This document shows, in pieces, positions 36,901-48,900 of a DNA stretch of 64,000 bases. The notes under the pieces are model-generated. The model ran no database searches, had not been told where the DNA came from, and was given only the letters and a program-made list of their open reading frames with translations. The stretch comes from Henricia sp. BOLD:AAB3569 (taxonomy: Eukaryota; Echinodermata; Asteroidea; Spinulosida; Echinasteridae), in NCBI GenBank assembly GCA_037783545.1, contig JBBELK010000001.1, positions 248,001 to 312,000 on the forward strand. Direction: 5' to 3'. Position numbers and translations under genes: made by a program. Position 1 is the stretch's first letter. Each line of letters opens with the position of its first letter.

Positions 36901-39900
36901 TTAATATTTTGCGCAACGTAAAATTACTTCTTACGAGAACAAAACCAGTTTAAGTTGGACAGACTGCATAAAACTTACTCAAAGTTATTAAGTTGCAATA
37001 ACTTAAAATCACTGGTACCGGAAGACCCGTGCATAATTACGCATGCGCGTAGGGGACGTACAAAGTCTTGTTTCTGCGACGTGATAACCATGGCTGTTAC
37101 GTTGCTTAGTTTTGGTTACCACCGGGCCGAAAGCAATTACGGGCAAGCTCTCTTGGAGCATTGTTTGAGTAAGTATCGATTCCCCATAAATGACTCTTGG
37201 GCCATTGGTTCCCCTAATTGGCAAGAGAATCCAATTGACAAACTTATGAAGTTAAACTTACTACAAGATATTAAGTTGCAATAACTTAAAAACACTGGAC
37301 ATTGGAAATGTATAGAATATGAGAGTGAATGCATTCCATTTGTTTTTTTGAGTTGTTTTAAAAAATACAACTATAAGTAATAAATATTTACTAGATTGAG
37401 TTGAAATTACTAATTAAAATTAAAAATGACCTCTTAACTTGAAATAATTAAGTATATTCAGTACTGTTGACAACAAGTAATCTTAACAAACAAATATACA
37501 TGGCTTTAACTTAAAAATACGTTAAGTTGAAAGGACGTAACTGAATTAAGGCAACAAAGTTGCCTTTATTTTTTTAAGTTTCCTCAACGAAATATTTTTT
37601 TGAGTGTATATAAGGAGTAATAATGATCGGATCCACTCATTATTACTCCTTATATACACTCAAAAAAATATTTCGTTGAGGAAACTTAAAAAAATAAAGG
37701 CAACTTTGTTAAAAGATTTTCCTAAGTGGGCATGCGCGGAAATCCAGCTATTTTTTGATCGGTGTTTCTGATCATTTTTCCATGTTTGCGCATACAAACC
37801 ATAATCACCAAGTTGTACGTATGGCTAGACTACTTGTAGTCTAGCCATACGTACAACTTGGTGATTATGGTTTGTATGCGCAAACATGGAAAAATGATCA
37901 GAAACACCGATCAAATAGCTGGATTTCCGCGCATGCCCACTTAGGAAAATCTTTTAACACCAGAACAATTTACACCAAGATATTCAATAATTTAACACCA
38001 AAAGAATCACGTCAAGTTTTACACCAGGCTGGTGTCAGAGTTTCTTGTCTTACTACAGAAATTTTACCTACATTATTATTATCAGTGCTGCATAAAACCA
38101 TAAAAACCATGCAATTTTTTAAAACCTTAAGTTATTTTCTTACAGAAAGTAAATGTGCCATTTTGTTCACATTTTGGGTCCCATTTTTATGGAAAACCCC
38201 ATTTTATAACTGTTTTACATGTTATAACAGTTTGCTAAAGTTTGTAATTTTCTGCGGCACTTTTTATTTATTTCAAAGTCAAATGACTTGGTATTGATTT
38301 CATTTATTTTCACAACAAAAATTTGTTGGATTTTGGTGTTCATTTTGGAACCAAAACATAACAAATTTTACTTTTTGAAGTGGCAAATTCGGCAATAAAA
38401 AGGCTGCTGTATTCCTGTGAGCTGTGAGTTCCGATGTGCCAAAATCAATTAATTTCACAGCAAACTATTTTGACAAAATCTTAAGAACAAATTCACGCAT
38501 CGAAATTGAAAATGAAACCGATTTTTCGAATAGTAAATTATTCGAAAATGCACAGGCCTATTTGATTTCATGTCAAAATAAATAAAGCTTAAATATCATC
38601 TATAACTATTAAAGAGAATTAACCTGTAGAATTGAAAGCCAAGTAATGTAATGCACACCCGGGTGGCATACCGTAGGCTAAATAGTTATTGTGTACTTCA
38701 TAGCATTAGTTTCAAAGCAAGTCAAACACTATTATGTACATGGCCATTTCATCAAAGCTTGTAATGCGATCATTTCTCGGACTGAAAGTTCTATTTTCTT
38801 CTGAAAGTCATATTTCCTCTTGGTTGTCTCTCTCTCTCCCCTGCTACCCCCATGATACTAGTCACTAATGTTTGCTCAAGAGATCAGGCAATTTCTTTGA
38901 AAATACTTTGAAAATATTTTGCTGCGAGTCAGACTATATGTAACTCTTGAGTGACATAATGTACACTTTGGGACGTTTGCAGTATTTTCACAGGAAACAT
39001 ACATGTAGATTGCTGATCAAAAATACGCTGTCATCATCACCATAAAAAAAAAAGACTCAAAATTAAAATTTTTCCACAATTTGCATTTTTTTTTCGGCCT
39101 TGAATTTTTGTGTTCCCTACAGTTAATGATACAGTAAGACATCTGATGAGTGATCACATAAAAATCATCGGATATCAATTACTCAAGAAAAAAATTTCAA
39201 AGCCCAAAAAAATGGCCTTTTTGGGAAAATTTTGTTTGAGTCTTTTTTTTAGCAGTATTAAAGTTAAAAAAATAGCTTTTCACTGAAATTAAACACATCT
39301 ACATTACCAGAAATTTGTAAACTGCCTGTGTCAAATGAGGGCGCTGTAACCACGTTATGCGCACGCGCAATAATTGTTTACATGTATGAAAAAACGGACA
39401 AGGAGTCAGTTGTTTGGATCTCACCACCAGCTAGGATTATTATTGGTTTCTATGGATCTGCAGGATTCCCTTGGATTAGGTCGATTCCAAATGTGTGGTT
39501 AATGGATGTGTTCCAAGTGTGCTACGTGGTTTATCCCAAATGTGTGGTTTTTAAAGATTCACGCACAGGAATAATCTTGGATACATTGTGGTTAAGATAG
39601 GTTGGTTGTCTATCCCATCCGGTCTCTGAATTGGTGGAAATTTAGGCTTAAAAACAGAGTCTGGAAAATGGCAAATGATTAGGAACAAAATTGACATGGG
39701 AATGAACTGTTGTCTGGTGATTAGATACACAAACTATTGAGGGCGCTATTCAATGAGACCGTTGGATTGCTTTCCTTACTGGATTCACTAATAAATCAAC
39801 AGAGGGCGCTATTTAAGTCCCCTGATCAGGAATGCTTTCTGACACAGCCGCCCTTAAATTTGAGAAGAAAATTTACAAACAAAAGCATTAATGACACTGT

Positions 39901-42900
39901 TCTGGTAAAACTGTCAGTCCCATACTAGGTGGGCGCGTCCTTAGGTTTATCATCATCACGCATCTCTGGAAGCTGGACCAATCGGGCTACAGGGCGTGTG
40001 TAGACCTTGCTTCTGACCTTGACGTTTGCAGTGCGTACATGTCCATCCGGTCCAGGGAAGGTTTCAGTGACCCTGCCGATAGGCCACTGAGCTCGAGTGA
40101 GGTTAGGATCCACGATCATCACGACATCGCCCTGGGACACCTCGGTCGTATTCCGCTGCCACTTTTCGCGTCTCTGTAGTGTTGGTAGGTAGACCTGGAT
40201 GAACCTTGACCAGAAGTGATCAGCAAGGATTTGGCTGTGTTTCCATTGTCGGCGTCCGAGCAAGTCCCTCGCTGGGTAAACCACTTGTGGTAGAGACGGA
40301 TCGTATCGTCCCATCAGCAGAACGTTCGGCGTCACTGGATCAGGGTCAGCGACATCCGATGACACGTAACCAAGTGGCTTCGAGTTGAGTATCCCCTCAA
40401 CTTCGATGAGGACCGTACGAAGAACCTGTTCAGGAACGGTCTGGTCGCCGAGGATGACTCGCAGGCCATATTTGGCCGACTTGATCTCACGCTCCCACAA
40501 GCCTCCGAAATGTGGAGCGTTCGGGGGATTGAAGCGGAACCTGACTTGTTGTTTGGCAAGCTCCCTCTGCAAGGCTGGCTCCATTGCGGAGAAGGCTTCT
40601 TTGAGCTCAGAAGCACCACCCTTGAAGTTGGTCCCACAATCTGAGAGTAGCTCGAATGGCTTCCCTCTTCGGGATACAAATCGCCTGAAAGCCATGAGGA
40701 ATGAGTCTGTATCTAGACCCGCCAGTAGGTCCAAATGCACTGCTCTTGTTGTCATGCACTTGAAAATAATGCCCCAGCGTTTCTCGGATCTCCTGCCGAT
40801 CTTGACGGTCATCGGACCGAAACAGTCGATACCTGTCGAGTAGAAGGGTGGCTTCTGGATTCGGAGACGTGCAGGAGGAAGATCTCCCATTTTGGGAACA
40901 GTAGGGGTTGCTCTCCATCTCTGGCAGTCAAAGCATTGACGCTGGTGCTTACGAATGGCCTCTCTACCACGCAGAATCCAGAACTTTCTTCTTATTTCGG
41001 CATGGACTCGTTCTGGGCCATAATGCATCGTGTTCTTGTCGTAGGCACGGATTAGGAGTTTTGTCACTGGATGTGCTGGGTCAAGCACTATTGGGTGCTT
41101 AGTGAGCTGCGGGATGCCTTCAGCACGACGTAGACGTCCTCCAACTCTTATCACACCGCCGATTTCATCCCATTCTGGTGAAAGCTTTAGCAGTCGGCTC
41201 CTTATGGGAATTTCTCTACTACTTTTGAGAGCTGCACATTCTTCAGGGAAGGACGACCTCTGGGCTTGTTGGTAGAGGTTCAGCTCGATCTCTGCTCGCT
41301 CATCGGCAGAGAGCTCTTTAGGGTCTTGCTGCGTAGCCGCCCCATCACGGGTCTGCTTTGATGCCTCAATAAGGTCATCCCAGGTTTCATACTTATCGAG
41401 ATCTTGAATGTCGGTAGGCTCTATGGTGACTATTCCACAGAATGTGGACTTCTTCAACTCGCAGTTGTCTTCAGCTAAGGCTGGTGGAGTTGCTGGCCAC
41501 ATATCGCAGTGAAGCGAGAGAAATGGTGGGCCATCTCGCCATCTGCTAGGTTGGCTGAGTGATTGCAGAGACATCCCTCTGGTCAGATCGTCAGCCGGGT
41601 TGTCCTTGGTATTAACATATCGCCACTGGTTGACGTCAGTCACGGTCTGGATCTGTGATATCCGGGTCCCGACGAAGACCTTGTATCTGCAAGACTCGGA
41701 CTTGAGCCAAGTCAAGACGGTGGTAGAATCACTCCATAAAGTGATGCTCTCCAATGGTAGCGTCAACTCCTCTTGAAGAAGACTGGATAGTTGAGCCCCG
41801 GTCAAAGCGGCTGAGAGTTCGAGGCGTGGTATGGACAGCTGCTTCTTCGGAGCAACTCTTGATCTTGCCATGAGGAATCTGGTATGTATGTTGTGTTCAG
41901 CATCTTCTGTTCGGAGATAGGCCACTGCTCCATAAATCCTCTCTGAGGCGTCGCAAAAGATGTGAAGCTGGCGACTAGCTGTTTCGAGGTTGATGCCGGG
42001 TGGTGTGTAGCATCTGGGTAGTATGATGTTAGACAGCTGTGGTAGCTCGCTTTCCCACTCTTGCCACCGGTCCATAATGTCTCCTGGTTCCAGGACTTCA
42101 TCCCATTCACGTTTGGTTTTCCACAAGTCCTGTACAATGACGCGGGCTCTTGCAGTGAAGGGGGTCAGGTATCCAATGGGGTCGTATTGGCTAGCTAAGG
42201 TTTTGTATATGTTTCTCATGCTGAGACACTCATATTTCACTTCTCTGAGCTGGTATTGCAGGTCGTCAGTGCTGCAGTCCCACTTGAGCCCGAGCATGGG
42301 TTCGGTGGTGTCCGTCTCACCGAATGCCAACCACAGATCGCATCCATCTGAGCGGGCCTCTGGAGGTAGGTCATCTACAACACTGGGCAAGTTACTAGCC
42401 CACTGACGTATCTCAAAACCGCCCTGGGCGAGCGAGTCACGCATAGCATGGACGAGGGATTTAGCTTCATTCTCTCCTGGTATGCTGACCAAGCAGTTGT
42501 CAACGTAGAATGATTGGTCGACTGCGGCAGCAACTTCTGGGTACTCTTCTTGGTGGTCGAAGGCATGCTTGCGTAAAGCATACGTGGCACAGCATGGACT
42601 GCAGGTAGCTCCAAACGGCAGTACTTGCCACTCATAGATATTAGGTTCTGAGTCAGACTTCAAGTTGCGCCAAAGGAACCGAAAGAGGCATCTCTCGTCT
42701 GGTTGGAGCTTAACTTGGTGGAACATTGCCTTGATGTCCCCTGAAGCAGCTACTTCGTGTTGGCGGAAGCGCAACAGTACAGCAATGAGCGATGCACTAA
42801 GTGGTGGGCCTGGAAGTAGATGCTGGTTGAGCACCTGGTCTTGGTACTGGAAGGAGCAGTTGAACACAAGACGGTACTTCCCGTTGTGCTCAACAAGGTG

Positions 42901-45900
42901 ATGAGGAATGTACCAGGATTCGTCGGATTTGGCAGCTTCCTCTGGCGACAAGATTCTGGCGTAGCCACCGTCGACTAGCTTCTGAACCAACTCGTTGTGC
43001 TTTTCCGCTAACTGTGGTCGGGTTTCTAGGCGCTTTTCAGTCCTCCTCAGGGTAGGAAGAACAGCTTCCTTTGGAGCATGGAACTTTGTATCATCAGCTC
43101 GCAATAATGGAGTGATATAACGCTTTATTCCTCCTTCGGTCACACAGGTTGTTTCGTCTTCAAGCAACTTCATAGCTCTTTGGTCTTGCTTGGAGCGAAC
43201 GGCATGTTTTTCATTCACATGCGGTAGGATGTCTACTTGCCAGAGTCTCTCGACGTGCTTCATCAGATCTGTAGTGTCTGCTTGGGGTGAAACTGTAAAG
43301 CATCTGGGCTCGTCAGCTTTCTGCTCCAAGATTCCAGCTGGTCCCTGGAGTGTCCAACCTAACTTGGTCAGAACGGCTACTGGTGCTCTGCGAGGTCCGA
43401 ATTTGACAGGTTGCCTCGGAGTGATGAGGTCCACGTGATCTGAACCATTGAGGATTACTGGTTGAGCACACTCGATTGCTGGTAGCGGTAAGTCACGGAG
43501 ATGGGGGTACTTTTGTTGCAGGGTCTTCACCTCGTAGGTGTATTCAGAGAGACACAGGTTGGCAGCTGTAAAGACGCCATCGAGGGAGAATTTGGAACCT
43601 GGCTCATCATAGGGTGACAGGGATAGGGACACGGATTGGCCCTGGCATGTGACGATGTCTTCTCTGACGGTTCTCAGATGCATGGTTTCTGCTTTACCCT
43701 GTAGGTTGAGCTGTTGAGCTGCCCCTTGCAGAAGCATGGTTCGCTCAGATCCATCATCTAGGAGTGCATAAGAGTCTATGCTGGTGTTTGGGCCGTGGAG
43801 GACAACTCTCACTACTTTCAGCAAGATGCCACAGGGACGTCGGGGTTTATCGACGTAGACAGACTGGGTGGTAAACGTCGGTTTCACCAAATATACATTG
43901 GTAGCTCTTTGGGCTGCCTCGTGCAGAACTGTCAGGTGAATCTGCTTGCACTGGTGGCACGGTTTCTTCAAGGTGCAAGCTTCAGGTGCATGTTTGCGGC
44001 AACACTTCCAACAGCGCTTGTTGTCTTGGATCCACTTGATGATATCATCGGTGCTGTGTGCCTTGAACTTCTCACAGCCATTCAGGAAGTGATCATTTCC
44101 ATCACAGTAAGGGCAGAATGGCTTTGGCTTGTTGAATCTTGGCGGTGCTGCACTTGGCTGTTTACTGCCTGTGAAGAAGGCCGAGGTGGGAGGTTGTTTA
44201 GGCCTCCACGGTGGTCGGTCTCTCCTTTGGTTGGTACCACTCTGGTCGGGAATGTGGCCAGTAACGGCTCGCTTGGCCAACATCTGGGACTGTGACTTTA
44301 ACTTAAGCCACATGGCAAACTGGGGCAGAGTGTACGTTTCGCCCGAGTTCGGCTTCAGGATGCCAGACTTCATGCAGTATTCGATGAAGTTGGTGCGGAG
44401 ACCCGGAGAGAGCTTACTTAGCAGCTTATCCACATGTGAGCCACAGCGAAGTTCAACTCCAGACTGACTCTCCAAGGATTCTAGCATGCCCACGAGTGAC
44501 TGGACATCTAGGCAGAAATCTTCAAAGGCCTCTGTGTCGTTAGACTTGATGGGAGGAGTCATCATAATGGCTGCGATTTCGGACTGGACAAGTTGTCGAG
44601 GCTGGCCGTACTTATCGGTCAATGCAGCTAAAGCGGTGGTGTACGGCTGGTTGCTGTGCATGTAGGATTTGGCAAGTTTAAGTGCCTTGCCGTCCAATTT
44701 GTCAATCAGCACCTGGTATTTATACTGCTCGCTGAGGTGAGGGTGGACATTGACTAGGTTGTGCAGCGCCATCTTTAGCAGGGCGAACTCTCTCTCCTTG
44801 CCATTGGAGAATCTAGGAAGATTCGGCTTCGGTACACCAAGTGAGGAGGCCATTATGAGGTCGGCGAGGTTTGGTGCTGCAATGACGCTGGGAGGTGACA
44901 AAGGACTCTGGTGCGGCAAAGCGGATGAGGAATACGGCAATGACTGAGTCATTCCAGGCGGGAGTATCGTCCCCGGTGAGTAATGAGTCACATGACTACT
45001 GGTGTTGCAGGGATGTGCAACAGGCACAGGGGGATTCATGATTGGAGATGAGGAAAGGGACCATGTCATATTCCCTCCATATGGAGTCCGCTGTTGGCAG
45101 GTAGTTGTGACAGTGCAGTGGGGTGTTGCCATGGCAACGAGTGGCGGTGGTGCATTAATGATGCAGGTTGGCGCAGGGTACATCTGCTTGGATGCGCTGG
45201 TGATTTGGAACACCGGTACTTGGCCCATGCTCACTGGTCTCTGGAACGTACTGGTCATTGGATGTGGATGGTCAGTTGCCTGGGCACGGGTTTCTGCTGC
45301 AGCTTGGATCTGGGAGGTGATTGGTTGCTGGTCAGCAGTGGAATGGCTAGGTAAACTGATAGGTGAACCATCCTTTGGCTGGGATGAGGCTGGCAAAACA
45401 TCTGCCCCATCAGATGAACTCAGAGACGTATTACTCAATGAAAGAGTCGGGTCAGCAATTGGCCGGGTAGAAGGGACCTCGCTGGTGTCAAGGACCTTCA
45501 TGTCCACTTCTTGCATAAGGGTCTGAACTACTTCTGCATCACGCAATTCCTGCTCAGCTTGACGGAGTCGTCGTTGCTTGGTGAGGCGTGCGGTGAGAGT
45601 TTCACGCTCTCGGATCGCTCGTCGCTCAATTTCTTCCAGCTCTGAATGGGTTGCTTCAAGCTGCATACGTGCTGCTCTGGCTCGATCATCTCGCTCTTGG
45701 AGCTGCTTGTCGTACACTTCGTCCTCTTCGATCTGCTTCCGGAGTTCCTTGACATCGGAGTGCTTTCGCATGGCATTAAGTCGGGCCACCTGGGAATCAC
45801 TTAGTTGTGAATAGTTGGAACGGATTGACCGTGTCGAACGGTTCGAGTGGTGCGAACTCAGGGAAGGAGAACAGCTGCCGTTGATGGAAGAACCAAGGCC

Positions 45901-48900
45901 ATTTTCGCTGGCAGACAGGTGTTCAGGCTCGGAGGGGATGGACATTGTTGGCTGCAGATCCATAGGTCGCTGGTTCGAATCCGGCTCGAAGGACCATGAA
46001 AAAACGGACAAGGAGTCAGTTGTTTGGATCTCACCACCAGCTAGGATTATTATTGGTTTCTATGGATCTGCAGGATTCCCTTGGATTAGGTCGATTCCAA
46101 ATGTGTGGTTAATGGATGTGTTCCAAGTGTGCTACGTGGTTTATCCCAAATGTGTGGTTTTTAAAGATTCACGCACAGGAATAATCTTGGATACATTGTG
46201 GTTAAGATAGGTTGGTTGTCTATCCCATCCGGTCTCTGAATTGGTGGAAATTTAGGCTTAAAAACAGAGTCTGGAAAATGGCAAATGATTAGGAACAAAA
46301 TTGACATGGGAATGAACTGTTGTCTGGTGATTAGATACACAAACTATTGAGGGCGCTATTCAATGAGACCGTTGGATTGCTTTCCTTACTGGATTCACTA
46401 ATAAATCAACAGAGGGCGCTATTTAAGTCCCCTGATCAGGAATGCTTTCTGACAATGTAACTAAGAGCCAAACGCGCTTGCACGCGCTACATGATGCATG
46501 ATCAATGGTGCGCTATAGTTTAGCGTAGAGATTTTTACGTTTGTCATGCCAATGTACACTGCAAAAGTTCACGTAAAAAGACATTTTTTCCGCTTAATGT
46601 AAACTTTAAAATACCCCCTTTATTGACGCTATTTGCAAATTTGCTACAACGAGCCATTTTCTCGGAAAAAAGCCCTGAAGTCGGGCATATTGTACATCTC
46701 GTGTGCCTTTTGCCTCGAAAATCATTGCACATATGGAGTGATTTTCGCATGGCACAAGTACAATGGAAAATATTCAGTATTTTTGTCAAAAAAAGGACAA
46801 CAAACACGCAATGATTAGATCGTTGGCGTAGGCTATTTGCATTTTCGTTCTGATCGTTGGTATGCACATTGTAATGTCTTGTTGTCAAGACGCTGCACAA
46901 ACTCTACCAGCGCGCGGTCAATGTAAGTTCGTGCATGCGCAGAATGGTGTCTATACACACAGTACGTATTTCTGGTAATGAAAAGAAAATTCATATGAAT
47001 ATATGCAGTTATTCTGGTGCACAAATTTGGAGAACATGCAAATACAACATGCCTATAGTGTGTGTATATACACCCAGTGCCACTGGTGTATGTGTACATA
47101 GCAACCGCATTGTGTGACATACACAAACGTGTGTAAAGTGTGTACTTGTTGCATAGCAACGAGCCTTTCATGGACACTGATCTTGTATTAAAGTGATTAA
47201 CAAGCAATATGACATTACAACTGTTGGGAGAATTAAAGTTTTTTAAGTTGTCATGTATGGGCGGCCAAAAGGACCAAAATTAAAAAAATCTTCACAAAGG
47301 ACAAAACGACAGGAAAAGAACAAAATAGCAAGAGGACAAATTTACAGAAAGACAAAATCAAAATCAAACAAAGAACAAAGCCACATGAGGACAAATTTAT
47401 AAAAAGACAAACTCCAAATCAAACAAAGGACAAAACGGCAAGAGGACAAAATTACAAAAAGACATAGTAAAAATCAAACAAAGGACAAAACGACAAGAGT
47501 ACAAAATTACAAAAAGACATAGTAAAAATCAGACAAAGGACAAAAGGACAAATGTTACAAAAAGACAAACGCAAAGAACGTTTTCACAAATGGACGTCCA
47601 TATACACACGCCAATGACGTTTTCACAAATGGACGTCCATACACACGCCAAGGACGTTTTCACATATGGACGTCCATACACACGCCAAGGACGTTTTCAC
47701 AAATGGACATCCATACACACGCCAAGGACGTTTTCACGAAAGGACGTCAGCCCACACGCAAAGAACGTTTTCACAAAAGGACGTCCACACACGCAAACTA
47801 AAGACGTTTTCACAAAAGGACAAATGTTGACAACTTAAATAATATTGAACGCTGGGGGCGCTTCTTCAGATGTCCGCTAGCCTAAGTACGCCCGCGCGAT
47901 CACTCGACATAATAATTTGGGTCACTGCAAATGATGTACTGGGGTTGAAATAGACTCCCGAAGTGAATACATCATCTTTTGTTGGTTGCTTAGGCAATTG
48001 GCTGTACACTAAAAATCACTGAACCGTGTCCCTTTGCTTTTATTTTTTGCAATGGTACTTTTCCGACGGCCATTTTAGTTTAGAGCCAATTGTAATGGCA
48101 ACGCACGTCACACTTTGGCTGTCCTGTCAGGGAATGGCAATAGGGTTTTAACGTTGTGACGATATTCTTTGATTTTTCACCACATCGTACTGCGTTTGTA
48201 GGCGCTCAAAAGCCAATAAATGGGAGAAGGAGCTTAAAATCTATTGATTCAATAAATAAAATGAAGAAAATGTTGTCCGAACTTGTCACAAACAAATAAA
48301 CATGTTCGACTTGTTGTTTCGGCGGTTTGCAAGTTCATTCGCGAAGTACGGCCCTAGGGCTTGGTGCATCTGAGAAGCATTAACGACGCTAATCAAATAC
48401 CTCGTTTTAACGACAACTTGGACGTTCGCTACTGTTGAGAGTAGGTCAAACCAACACCAAAAACCCAAACAAATAAAGTACACATCGTCAGGACGGATAT
48501 CGCAAAGACCGTCTGAAGCCGAATCGAGAACTTTTGAAGAAAAAAAAAATTCACGCCTGCCCAGTTGCAGACTACCAGCGACGCGGTGTATTTTCTGTAA
48601 CGCTACCAGTTTATGCCAGAGACGGAAATATTTAAAATTGTATAAATCTTTTGCTCAATCAACGTTTCGCACAGGTAAAAAATGAGAGTTTAAGGATTTT
48701 TATAGTGGACCCCGAATCGGTAGGTGAAACTACTAATTTTGACGTAGTGTCAGACGGAGAACAACGAGTGTTTGAAGTTTTGAGTGCTCACTTTTGCCTT
48801 TTTCAAAAGGAATTAACGGGGAAGTGAACATGCTTACAAAAAATATATTCAATATTTTCAATACATGTATTGAATATGTTCAATCGGCAACTTGTTTTAT

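What the first reader, a model, noticed from the sequence alone, without database searches (positions are those of the whole stretch)
45952..45996. BEL primer-binding site is about 40 nt of tRNA-Tyr and supplies the polyprotein start codon
Directly inside the 5' LTR, the plus strand reads like tRNA-Tyr from the CCA end back through the T arm and variable region toward the anticodon stem, with very few changes. Retroelement primer sites normally match only the last 8-18 bases, because plus-strand copying stops at a modified A in the T loop. Here read-through or capture of a tRNA half seems to have occurred. The first ATG of gag-pol lies in this tRNA-derived stretch, so MDLQP is anti-tRNA sequence.
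Basis: partly seen in the sequence, partly recalled or inferred. Interest (0 to 1): 0.75.

Follow-up and report, generated by a model that had tools for sequence, protein, structure and literature searches.

The report
Retrotransposon carrying half a tRNA complement
Several BEL retrotransposon families in an animal genome share an unusually long, 39-base stretch complementary to the 3' half of tyrosine tRNA, with the first start codon of their protein inside it, which suggests a two-part docking site for the tRNA that starts their copying.

Summary
On the minus strand an intact BEL/Pao element (39387-46454) has, directly inside its 5' LTR, a stretch complementary to tRNA-Tyr positions 38-76: 39 of 39 bases with one host gene, 38 of 39 with the bulk type, which has A57. 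It is not private. Of 29 tRNA-Tyr primer sites found in the 740-Mb genome, 14 (F1, F1b, F2, F3) match 37-39 of 39, 4 (F4) keep an 18-nt site plus a separate box for tRNA 38-51, and 11 (F5-F7) lose the match after 18 or 19 bases. F1-F3 agree at 63 of 63 pairwise positions in the extension and at chance beyond it; F5-F7 give 18 of 63. The RT tree separates F1, F3 and F4 from F5-F7. F1-F3 complement G57, so the extension does not look refreshed from bulk tRNA each cycle. I read it as an ancient capture of a tRNA-Tyr 3' half, kept as a two-helix primer site overlapping the first in-frame AUG of gag. Pairing, the form of the primer, selection and use of that AUG are inferred, not shown.

The parts
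39387..46454 (-). BEL/Pao LTR retrotransposon, whole element
   Evidence: LTR pair; DUF1759, RVT_1, Peptidase_A17 (Pao), Integrase_H2C2 and DUF5641 matches on pieces
45997..46454 (-). 5' LTR (458 nt, TG..CA)
   Evidence: identical to 39387-39844
39387..39844 (-). 3' LTR
39382..39386 (.). target-site duplication ATGTA
   Evidence: read from the sequence printed; the twin copy is at 46455-46459
46455..46459 (.). target-site duplication ATGTA, other side
45979..45996 (-). canonical 18-nt primer site (complement of tRNA-Tyr 59-76), no spacer to the LTR
45958..45978 (-). 21-nt extension, complement of tRNA-Tyr 38-58 (G57 type)
   Evidence: 21/21 match; 63/63 pairwise identity among F1-F3
45952..45957 (-). 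F1-type further extension, complement of tRNA 32-37 across the splice junction (5 of 6, sixth a possible G.U pair)
   Evidence: also in F1b L041; may be chance
45961..45963 (-). first in-frame ATG of gag-pol, inside the extension
45943..45945 (-). second in-frame ATG, purine at -3
   Evidence: sequence
45995..45997 (-). ATG made by the LTR/primer-site junction (CA|TGG), other frame: MVLRAGFEPATYG...
   Evidence: sequence; frame
46060..46073 (-). LTR (presumed U5) segment perfectly complementary to 45952-45965 (14 nt), resembling the tRNA-Tyr anticodon arm
   Evidence: intact in 15 of 17 LTR matches found
39925..46059 (-). gag-pol open frame, 2044 codons stop to stop, first ATG at 45963
42238..43182 (-). 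reverse transcriptase piece used for the tree
   Evidence: RVT_1, E 4.1e-13

Best explanation
This is an extended, two-helix primer-binding site of a BEL/Pao clade. An ancestor acquired the complement of the 3' half of tRNA-Tyr (positions 38-76). The descendants kept it because primer tRNA-Tyr pairs with the genomic RNA through helix A (59-76, 18 bp, next to the LTR) and helix B (38-56, 19 bp, or about 38-51 in F4), with T-loop positions 57-58 left as an internal loop. Helix B spans the first in-frame AUG of gag, so an RNA with annealed tRNA would be poorly translated, which could help separate translated from reverse-transcribed RNA. Shown: the complementarity, its sharing among families with unlike flanks, its end at 38 in F2-F4, its absence from 18-nt families, and the position-57 mismatch to the listed bulk tRNA genes. 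Inferred: pairing in particles, selection as the cause, the capture origin, and any effect on translation.
For: Pairwise identity among one copy each of F1, F2 and F3, without gaps: 54/54 in the 18-nt site, 63/63 in the extension, then 5/18, 9/45 and 18/90 downstream; in the LTR 17/60, 21/45 and, for the last 5 bases, 15/15. F5-F7, with the same tRNA in the same genome, give 54/54 in the 18-nt site and 18/63 in the extension. Of 29 tRNA-Tyr sites, 14 match 37-39 of 39, 4 have an 18-nt site (17 of 18) plus a separate box, 11 lose the match after 18 or 19 bases. Predicted duplex of A57 tRNA 38-58 with the extension: -37 to -38 kcal/mol in F1-F3, -30.5 in F1b, -29 to -30 in F4, -9 to -10 in F5-F7, close to shuffles. 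In F4 the distance from TGG to ATG is 32 or 34 nt instead of 33 and the T-loop part has changed, yet the 38-51 box is 14/14 in 3 of 4 copies and 13/14 in one, so one kept upstream reading frame cannot explain it. F1, F3 and F4 fall in one group (96/90) with starfish and Haliotis proteins and C52, whose leaders are unknown; F5-F7 are separated at 100/100.
Against: No RNA or biochemical data. The clade shares ancestry, so families are not independent trials, and the kept box also holds the first AUG and its context. The 57 mismatch fits passive inheritance as well as pairing. A 39-nt duplex over the AUG could be harmful. Cofolding is a weak control: F7, with 19 bases, gives -27 against -34 for F4. 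Relatives P0004 (unnamed) and P0038 (fish) look like tRNA-Tyr sites followed by other residues (peptides only), so the extension seems dispensable elsewhere. The N-terminus of the starfish relative P0001 shows only a shared MD. Only one genome was open at DNA level.
Confidence: 0.55

Rival explanations
1. Over-extension model: in each cycle RT copies the primer tRNA past position 58 and stops before modified G37, so the plus-strand strong-stop carries 39 nt of tRNA and the long site is needed for, and renewed by, strand transfer.
For: The match ends exactly at 38 in F2, F3 and F4. Cytosolic tRNA-Tyr of human or bovine has m1G37 (PMC7200024 Table 1, passage seen). A review describes a minor HIV-1 product stopping at modified position 37 and a 'primer over-extension sequence' just after the PBS in lentiviruses and spumaviruses (PMC13191261, passages seen).
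Against: F1-F3 carry the complement of G57, but all listed tRNA gene copies except one have A57. F4 lost the T-loop part yet kept 38-51. F5-F7 use the same tRNA with 18-19 nt. The review counts the HIV-1 product ending at 37 as not functional.
Confidence: 0.15
2. The primer is a 3' half of tRNA-Tyr (the 3' exon 38-76 released during tRNA splicing, or an anticodon-cleaved half), by analogy with copia, which uses a half tRNA.
For: The 39-nt match in F2 and F3 ends where exon 2 of the intron-bearing host tRNA-Tyr gene begins, give or take one or two bases that also fit the intron; eukaryotic introns mostly sit at 37/38 (PMC4090602, passages seen); copia half-tRNA precedent (PMC5371799, passage seen).
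Against: F1 may continue across the splice junction to position 32. The 57 mismatch to listed bulk genes applies here too. No data on tRNA halves in this animal.
Confidence: 0.12
3. Inert legacy: an ancestor captured the tRNA half and the segment stays only because it supplies the gag AUG and its leader.
For: An ATG lies at this place in each of F1, F2, F3 and F4; the 57 mismatch fits passive inheritance.
Against: AUG context does not require 21 of 21 identical bases between families whose downstream sequence matches at chance. F1 and F3 have a second in-frame ATG close by, and the decayed copy L011 (F1b) has ATT in place of the first.
Confidence: 0.15
4. Chance or alignment artefact.
For: None found.
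Against: 39/39 match to a tRNA gene of the same genome; many copies and several families.
Confidence: 0.01

Closest known systems
Yeast Ty1 and Ty3 bipartite primer-binding sites
   Same: More than one segment of the genomic RNA pairs with the primer tRNA; in Ty1 the site lies in the GAG frame (PMC4974528, passages seen).
   Different: Initiator tRNA-Met, separated segments, T and D arms. Here one nearly continuous 39-nt stretch covers the 3' half and holds the first gag AUG.
Primer over-extension sequence of lentiviruses and spumaviruses
   Same: Complementarity to the primer tRNA continues beyond the 18-nt site (PMC13191261, passages seen).
   Different: The review ties it to products ending at positions 55 and 54; here the match runs to 38.
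copia half-tRNA priming
   Same: A tRNA half as functional unit is one possible reading (PMC5371799, passage seen).
   Different: copia uses a 5' half of initiator tRNA-Met (recalled); here it would be the 3' half with the normal CCA end.
Achilles, a BEL family of olive fly
   Same: BEL element with a tRNA-Tyr primer site (PMC4580426, passages seen).
   Different: 18 nt complementary as described there.
Bivalve TRIM elements
   Same: In two species tRNA-Tyr similarity lies just after the 5' terminal repeat (PMC6934838, passages seen).
   Different: Central part of the tRNA, no clear PBS, small non-autonomous elements.

Membership tests
BEL/Pao LTR retrotransposon | two LTRs with TG..CA ends and a short target-site duplication | tested here: met
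   458-nt identical LTRs, 5-nt duplication ATGTA
BEL/Pao LTR retrotransposon | Pao-type polyprotein domains | tested here: met
   PF03564, PF00078, PF05380, PF17921 and PF18701 on four of the five pieces scanned; the gag N-terminal piece matched none
BEL/Pao LTR retrotransposon | RT groups with BEL relatives | tested here: inconclusive
   RT tree of 28 rows, chosen from relatives found with this element; no gypsy, copia or retrovirus outgroup was included
tRNA-primed element with canonical 18-nt primer site | complementarity limited to about the last 18 nt of the tRNA | tested here: not met
   39 nt; met by F5-F7 in the same genome
bipartite primer-binding site (Ty1/Ty3 type) | a second region of tRNA complementarity beyond the primer site, conserved in relatives | tested here: met
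   F1-F4
bipartite primer-binding site (Ty1/Ty3 type) | second region needed for priming or tRNA packaging | not testable with these tools
   needs RNA experiments
primer over-extension sequence | extension copied from the tRNA during plus-strand synthesis | tested here: inconclusive
   end at 38 fits; the position-57 mismatch to listed bulk tRNA genes speaks against
half-tRNA primed element | primer is a tRNA fragment | not testable with these tools
   only the boundary coincidence

The most novel reading that the evidence does not exclude
These BEL elements are primed by a 3' half of tRNA-Tyr, or by a tRNA opened over its whole 3' half, and annealing that covers the gag AUG acts as a switch turning translated RNA into template RNA. 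In the F1 family a 14-nt LTR segment that mimics the tRNA anticodon arm competes for the same AUG region, a built-in counterpart of the tRNA.
Probability: 0.2. Interest if true: 0.8.

Novelty: new variant of a known kind. Interest (0 to 1): 0.6.

Why it matters
Primer sites of LTR elements are usually described as about 18 nt, explained by a block at modified A58. A clade that kept a 39-nt complement ending next to position 37 (modified in mammalian tRNA-Tyr), beside families that use the same tRNA with 18-19 nt, is a natural comparison for testing how far primer pairing and tRNA copying can go, and whether one RNA segment can serve both translation start and primer binding.

Tried and rejected
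Renewal from the primer each cycle: weakened by position 57. Upstream translated frame as cause of conservation: SWSFEPDSNQRP is open upstream in F1-F3, but in F4 the distance changes by one base either way. LTR:AUG pairing as a general feature: the 14-nt complement is perfect in 5 of 6 F1 loci and one mismatch away in the sixth; in the other 11 element loci examined the longest complement was 9 nt. F5-F8 were not tested for it. The predicted fold of 45900-46120 contains this helix but is not more stable than shuffles overall (z -0.75; 42 of 200 shuffles fold at least as well). Rfam, E up to 10: one weak match, Plastid-ycf2, E 2.6, rejected. Four IMG/VR scans found no relative. A protein search scored on the junction region had 5 candidates, none at E 10 or better. 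A search scored on residues 1-420 of the open frame gave one protein, P0001. In one search my tRNA comparison was one base out of register and the LTR one base too long; both corrected and in the notes. F2 could not be placed in the RT tree.

Rows dropped: from the RT tree, L060 and L062 (partial RT matches) were left out, and 14 of the 120 listed proteins were picked by hand. L049 (F1b), L050-L052 (F2) and L055 (F4) gave no RT match. The first tree (11 rows) gave the same split.

Full report
What is there. The finding lies at the 5' end of an intact BEL/Pao element on the minus strand. Its LTRs, 39387-39844 and 45997-46454, are identical over 458 nt, flanked by ATGTA on both sides (sequence). 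One frame of 2044 codons is open from inside the LTR to 39925. Of five pieces scanned, four match DUF1759, RVT_1, Peptidase_A17 (Pao), Integrase_H2C2 and DUF5641; the gag N-terminal piece matches nothing. Directly inside the LTR, with no spacer, the plus strand reads as tRNA-Tyr back from CCA.

Match to the host tRNA. The genome (740.7 Mb, 2104 contigs, unnamed) has tRNA-Tyr genes in tandem arrays. One unit, L018, reads CCTTCGATAGCTCAGTTGGTAGAGCGGTGGACTGTAG, a 10-nt intron by my reading, then ATCCATAGGTCGCTGGTTCGAATCCGGCTCGAAGGA. Against this tRNA, spliced and with CCA, the window element matches 39 of 39 for positions 38-76 and 44 of 45 for 32-76. Against the commoner gene type, with A57, it matches 38 of 39 (sequences).

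Sibling test. A search with the 61-nt junction scored 40 of 390 candidates and found six copies at 98-100% (F1), partial matches in other families, and tRNA genes. A pattern search for the last 14 tRNA bases plus CCA, one mismatch allowed, found 29 places; the reversed control pattern found 3. In one search the 29 were: F1 6, F1b 1, F2 3, F3 4 (37 to 39 of 39 bases each, 14 of 29); F4 4, with the 18-nt site at 17 of 18 and, after a changed T-loop part, the box AGCGACCTATGGAT (14 of 14 in 3 copies, 13 of 14 in one); F5 7, F6 3, F7 1 (match lost after 18 bases, in one F6 copy with a mismatch inside the site, and after 19 in F7; 11 of 29). Two more F3 copies with two changes in the 18-nt site came (L015, L016). 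Family names are mine.

Sharpness. With one copy each of F1, F2 and F3 aligned from the LTR end without gaps, pairwise identity is 17/60 and 21/45 in the LTR, 15/15 in its last five bases, 54/54 in the 18-nt site, 63/63 in the next 21, then 5/18, 9/45 and 18/90. F5-F7 give 54/54 in the 18-nt site and 18/63 in the next 21. The extension ends at tRNA position 38 in F2, F3 and F4. F1 and F1b continue with CTGCAG against CTACAG, which could be ancestry from a spliced tRNA or chance. F1b is a relative of F1 (gag start 69% with gaps), not an independent family.

Tree. RT pieces (28 rows, IQ-TREE, midpoint root) group F1 with two Patiria proteins, and these with F3, C52 and a third Patiria protein (100/99, eight rows). 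F4 pairs with a Haliotis protein (95/90) and joins them (96/90, eleven rows). Ten further proteins, six named as fish and four unnamed, form another group (93/94). This group, F8 and the eleven rows are a three-way split that is not resolved; F5-F7 with C43 are separated at 100/100. F8 has an 18-nt site that resembles tRNA-Trp (recalled) in 3 of the 4 leaders fetched; the fourth stretch (L066) did not show it. Leaders of C52, C43 and the proteins are unknown. F2 has no RT in the two copies (L050, L051) where other pol pieces were found; its best integrase piece (L051) is 64.5% identical to F1.

Hints from proteins. Of 185 hits 120 were listed, and I looked at their N-termini. P0004 (unnamed) and P0038 (Astyanax) begin MVLRAG, which is what a zero-spacer tRNA-Tyr site encodes, followed by unrelated residues before M. 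P0022 (unnamed) begins MVLPNINWSFEPDHSNQSIMD, which looks like a decayed version of the extension. The starfish protein P0001 begins MDR and shows no more of it.

Position 57. A 35-nt exon-2 pattern of G57 type, two mismatches allowed, gives 389 places. The 11 exact ones are 10 elements and one tRNA gene; the other tRNA copies among the about 100 places listed have A57. The copies of F1, F2 and F3 examined carry the complement of G57. If the extension were rewritten from the bulk primer each cycle, it should have A57's complement. I cannot say which genes are expressed, and about 290 places were not listed. G57 in other animals is recalled.

Mechanism. Predicted duplex energy of A57 tRNA 38-58 with the extension is -37 to -38 kcal/mol in F1-F3, -30.5 in F1b, -29 to -30 in F4 and -9 to -10 in F5-F7 (shuffle means -7 to -12). 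Cofolding the whole unmodified tRNA with leaders gave interaction energies of -62, -45 and -48 (F1-F3), -34 (F4) and -17, -19 and -27 (F5-F7), so F4 is not far from F7 by this measure. With m1A58 and the 57 mismatch, I expect two helices with an internal loop. That F4 lost the loop part but kept 38-51 fits this best. The boundary at 38 has two further readings: the base before it is m1G37 in human or bovine tRNA-Tyr (PMC7200024, passages), a possible RT block, and it is also the exon boundary (PMC4090602, passages). Either could explain how the segment was first captured.

Start codon. The tRNA-derived ATG is the first in-frame ATG in the F1, F2 and F3 copies read and in F4 copies L044 and L047; in F4 copy L043 the junction ATG is in frame too, and L046 reads MN. 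F1 and F3 have another in-frame ATG close downstream with a purine at -3 (sequence), and the LTR/site junction makes an earlier out-of-frame ATG in F1-F3. So the claim that the tRNA supplies the start codon is likely but unproven.

LTR copy. In F1 the LTR holds CTGCAGATCCATAG, perfectly complementary to the AUG region. None of 2000 LTRs with shuffled letters reached 12 nt of complement; the real one has 14. It is intact in 15 of 17 LTR matches (the search pattern contained it). F1b and the F2, F3 and F4 loci examined lack it. A U5:AUG pairing like that of HIV-1 (recalled) is possible; that the segment lies in U5 is presumed.

Literature. Ten searches showed me no description of a primer site of this extent in BEL elements. 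They covered open-licence PMC papers only; I saw listings with starts of abstracts and, for eight papers, passages.

Noticed in passing
G000 C109 about 127-198 kb and C837 about 144-159 kb: Large tandem arrays of tRNA-Tyr genes, alternating with tRNA-Lys in the two stretches examined (spacing often near 590 nt); 389 exon-2 matches in all including elements. One unit (L018 1073-1158) reads as tRNA-His.
   Followed up: partly
L050, L051 (F2): Both copies match protease and then the end of the RNase H region with no RT match between: a non-autonomous or deleted lineage that still carries the 39-nt primer site.
   Followed up: partly
L015, L016 (F3): Two copies share the same two changes in the 18-nt primer site (TGGTCCCGCG), which a site renewed from tRNA-Tyr should not have.
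   Followed up: no
window 47260-47590 and 47565-47820: Two tandem arrays beside the element, with spacings of 55 and 37 nt.
   Followed up: no
window 37553-37959: Nested long inverted repeats with arms of 79-80 and 47 nt, 97-100% complementary.
   Followed up: no
window 45960-45994 (-): Weak Rfam match to Plastid-ycf2 5'UTR (E 2.6, below threshold); that model's consensus itself looks like an antisense tRNA T arm.
   Followed up: no
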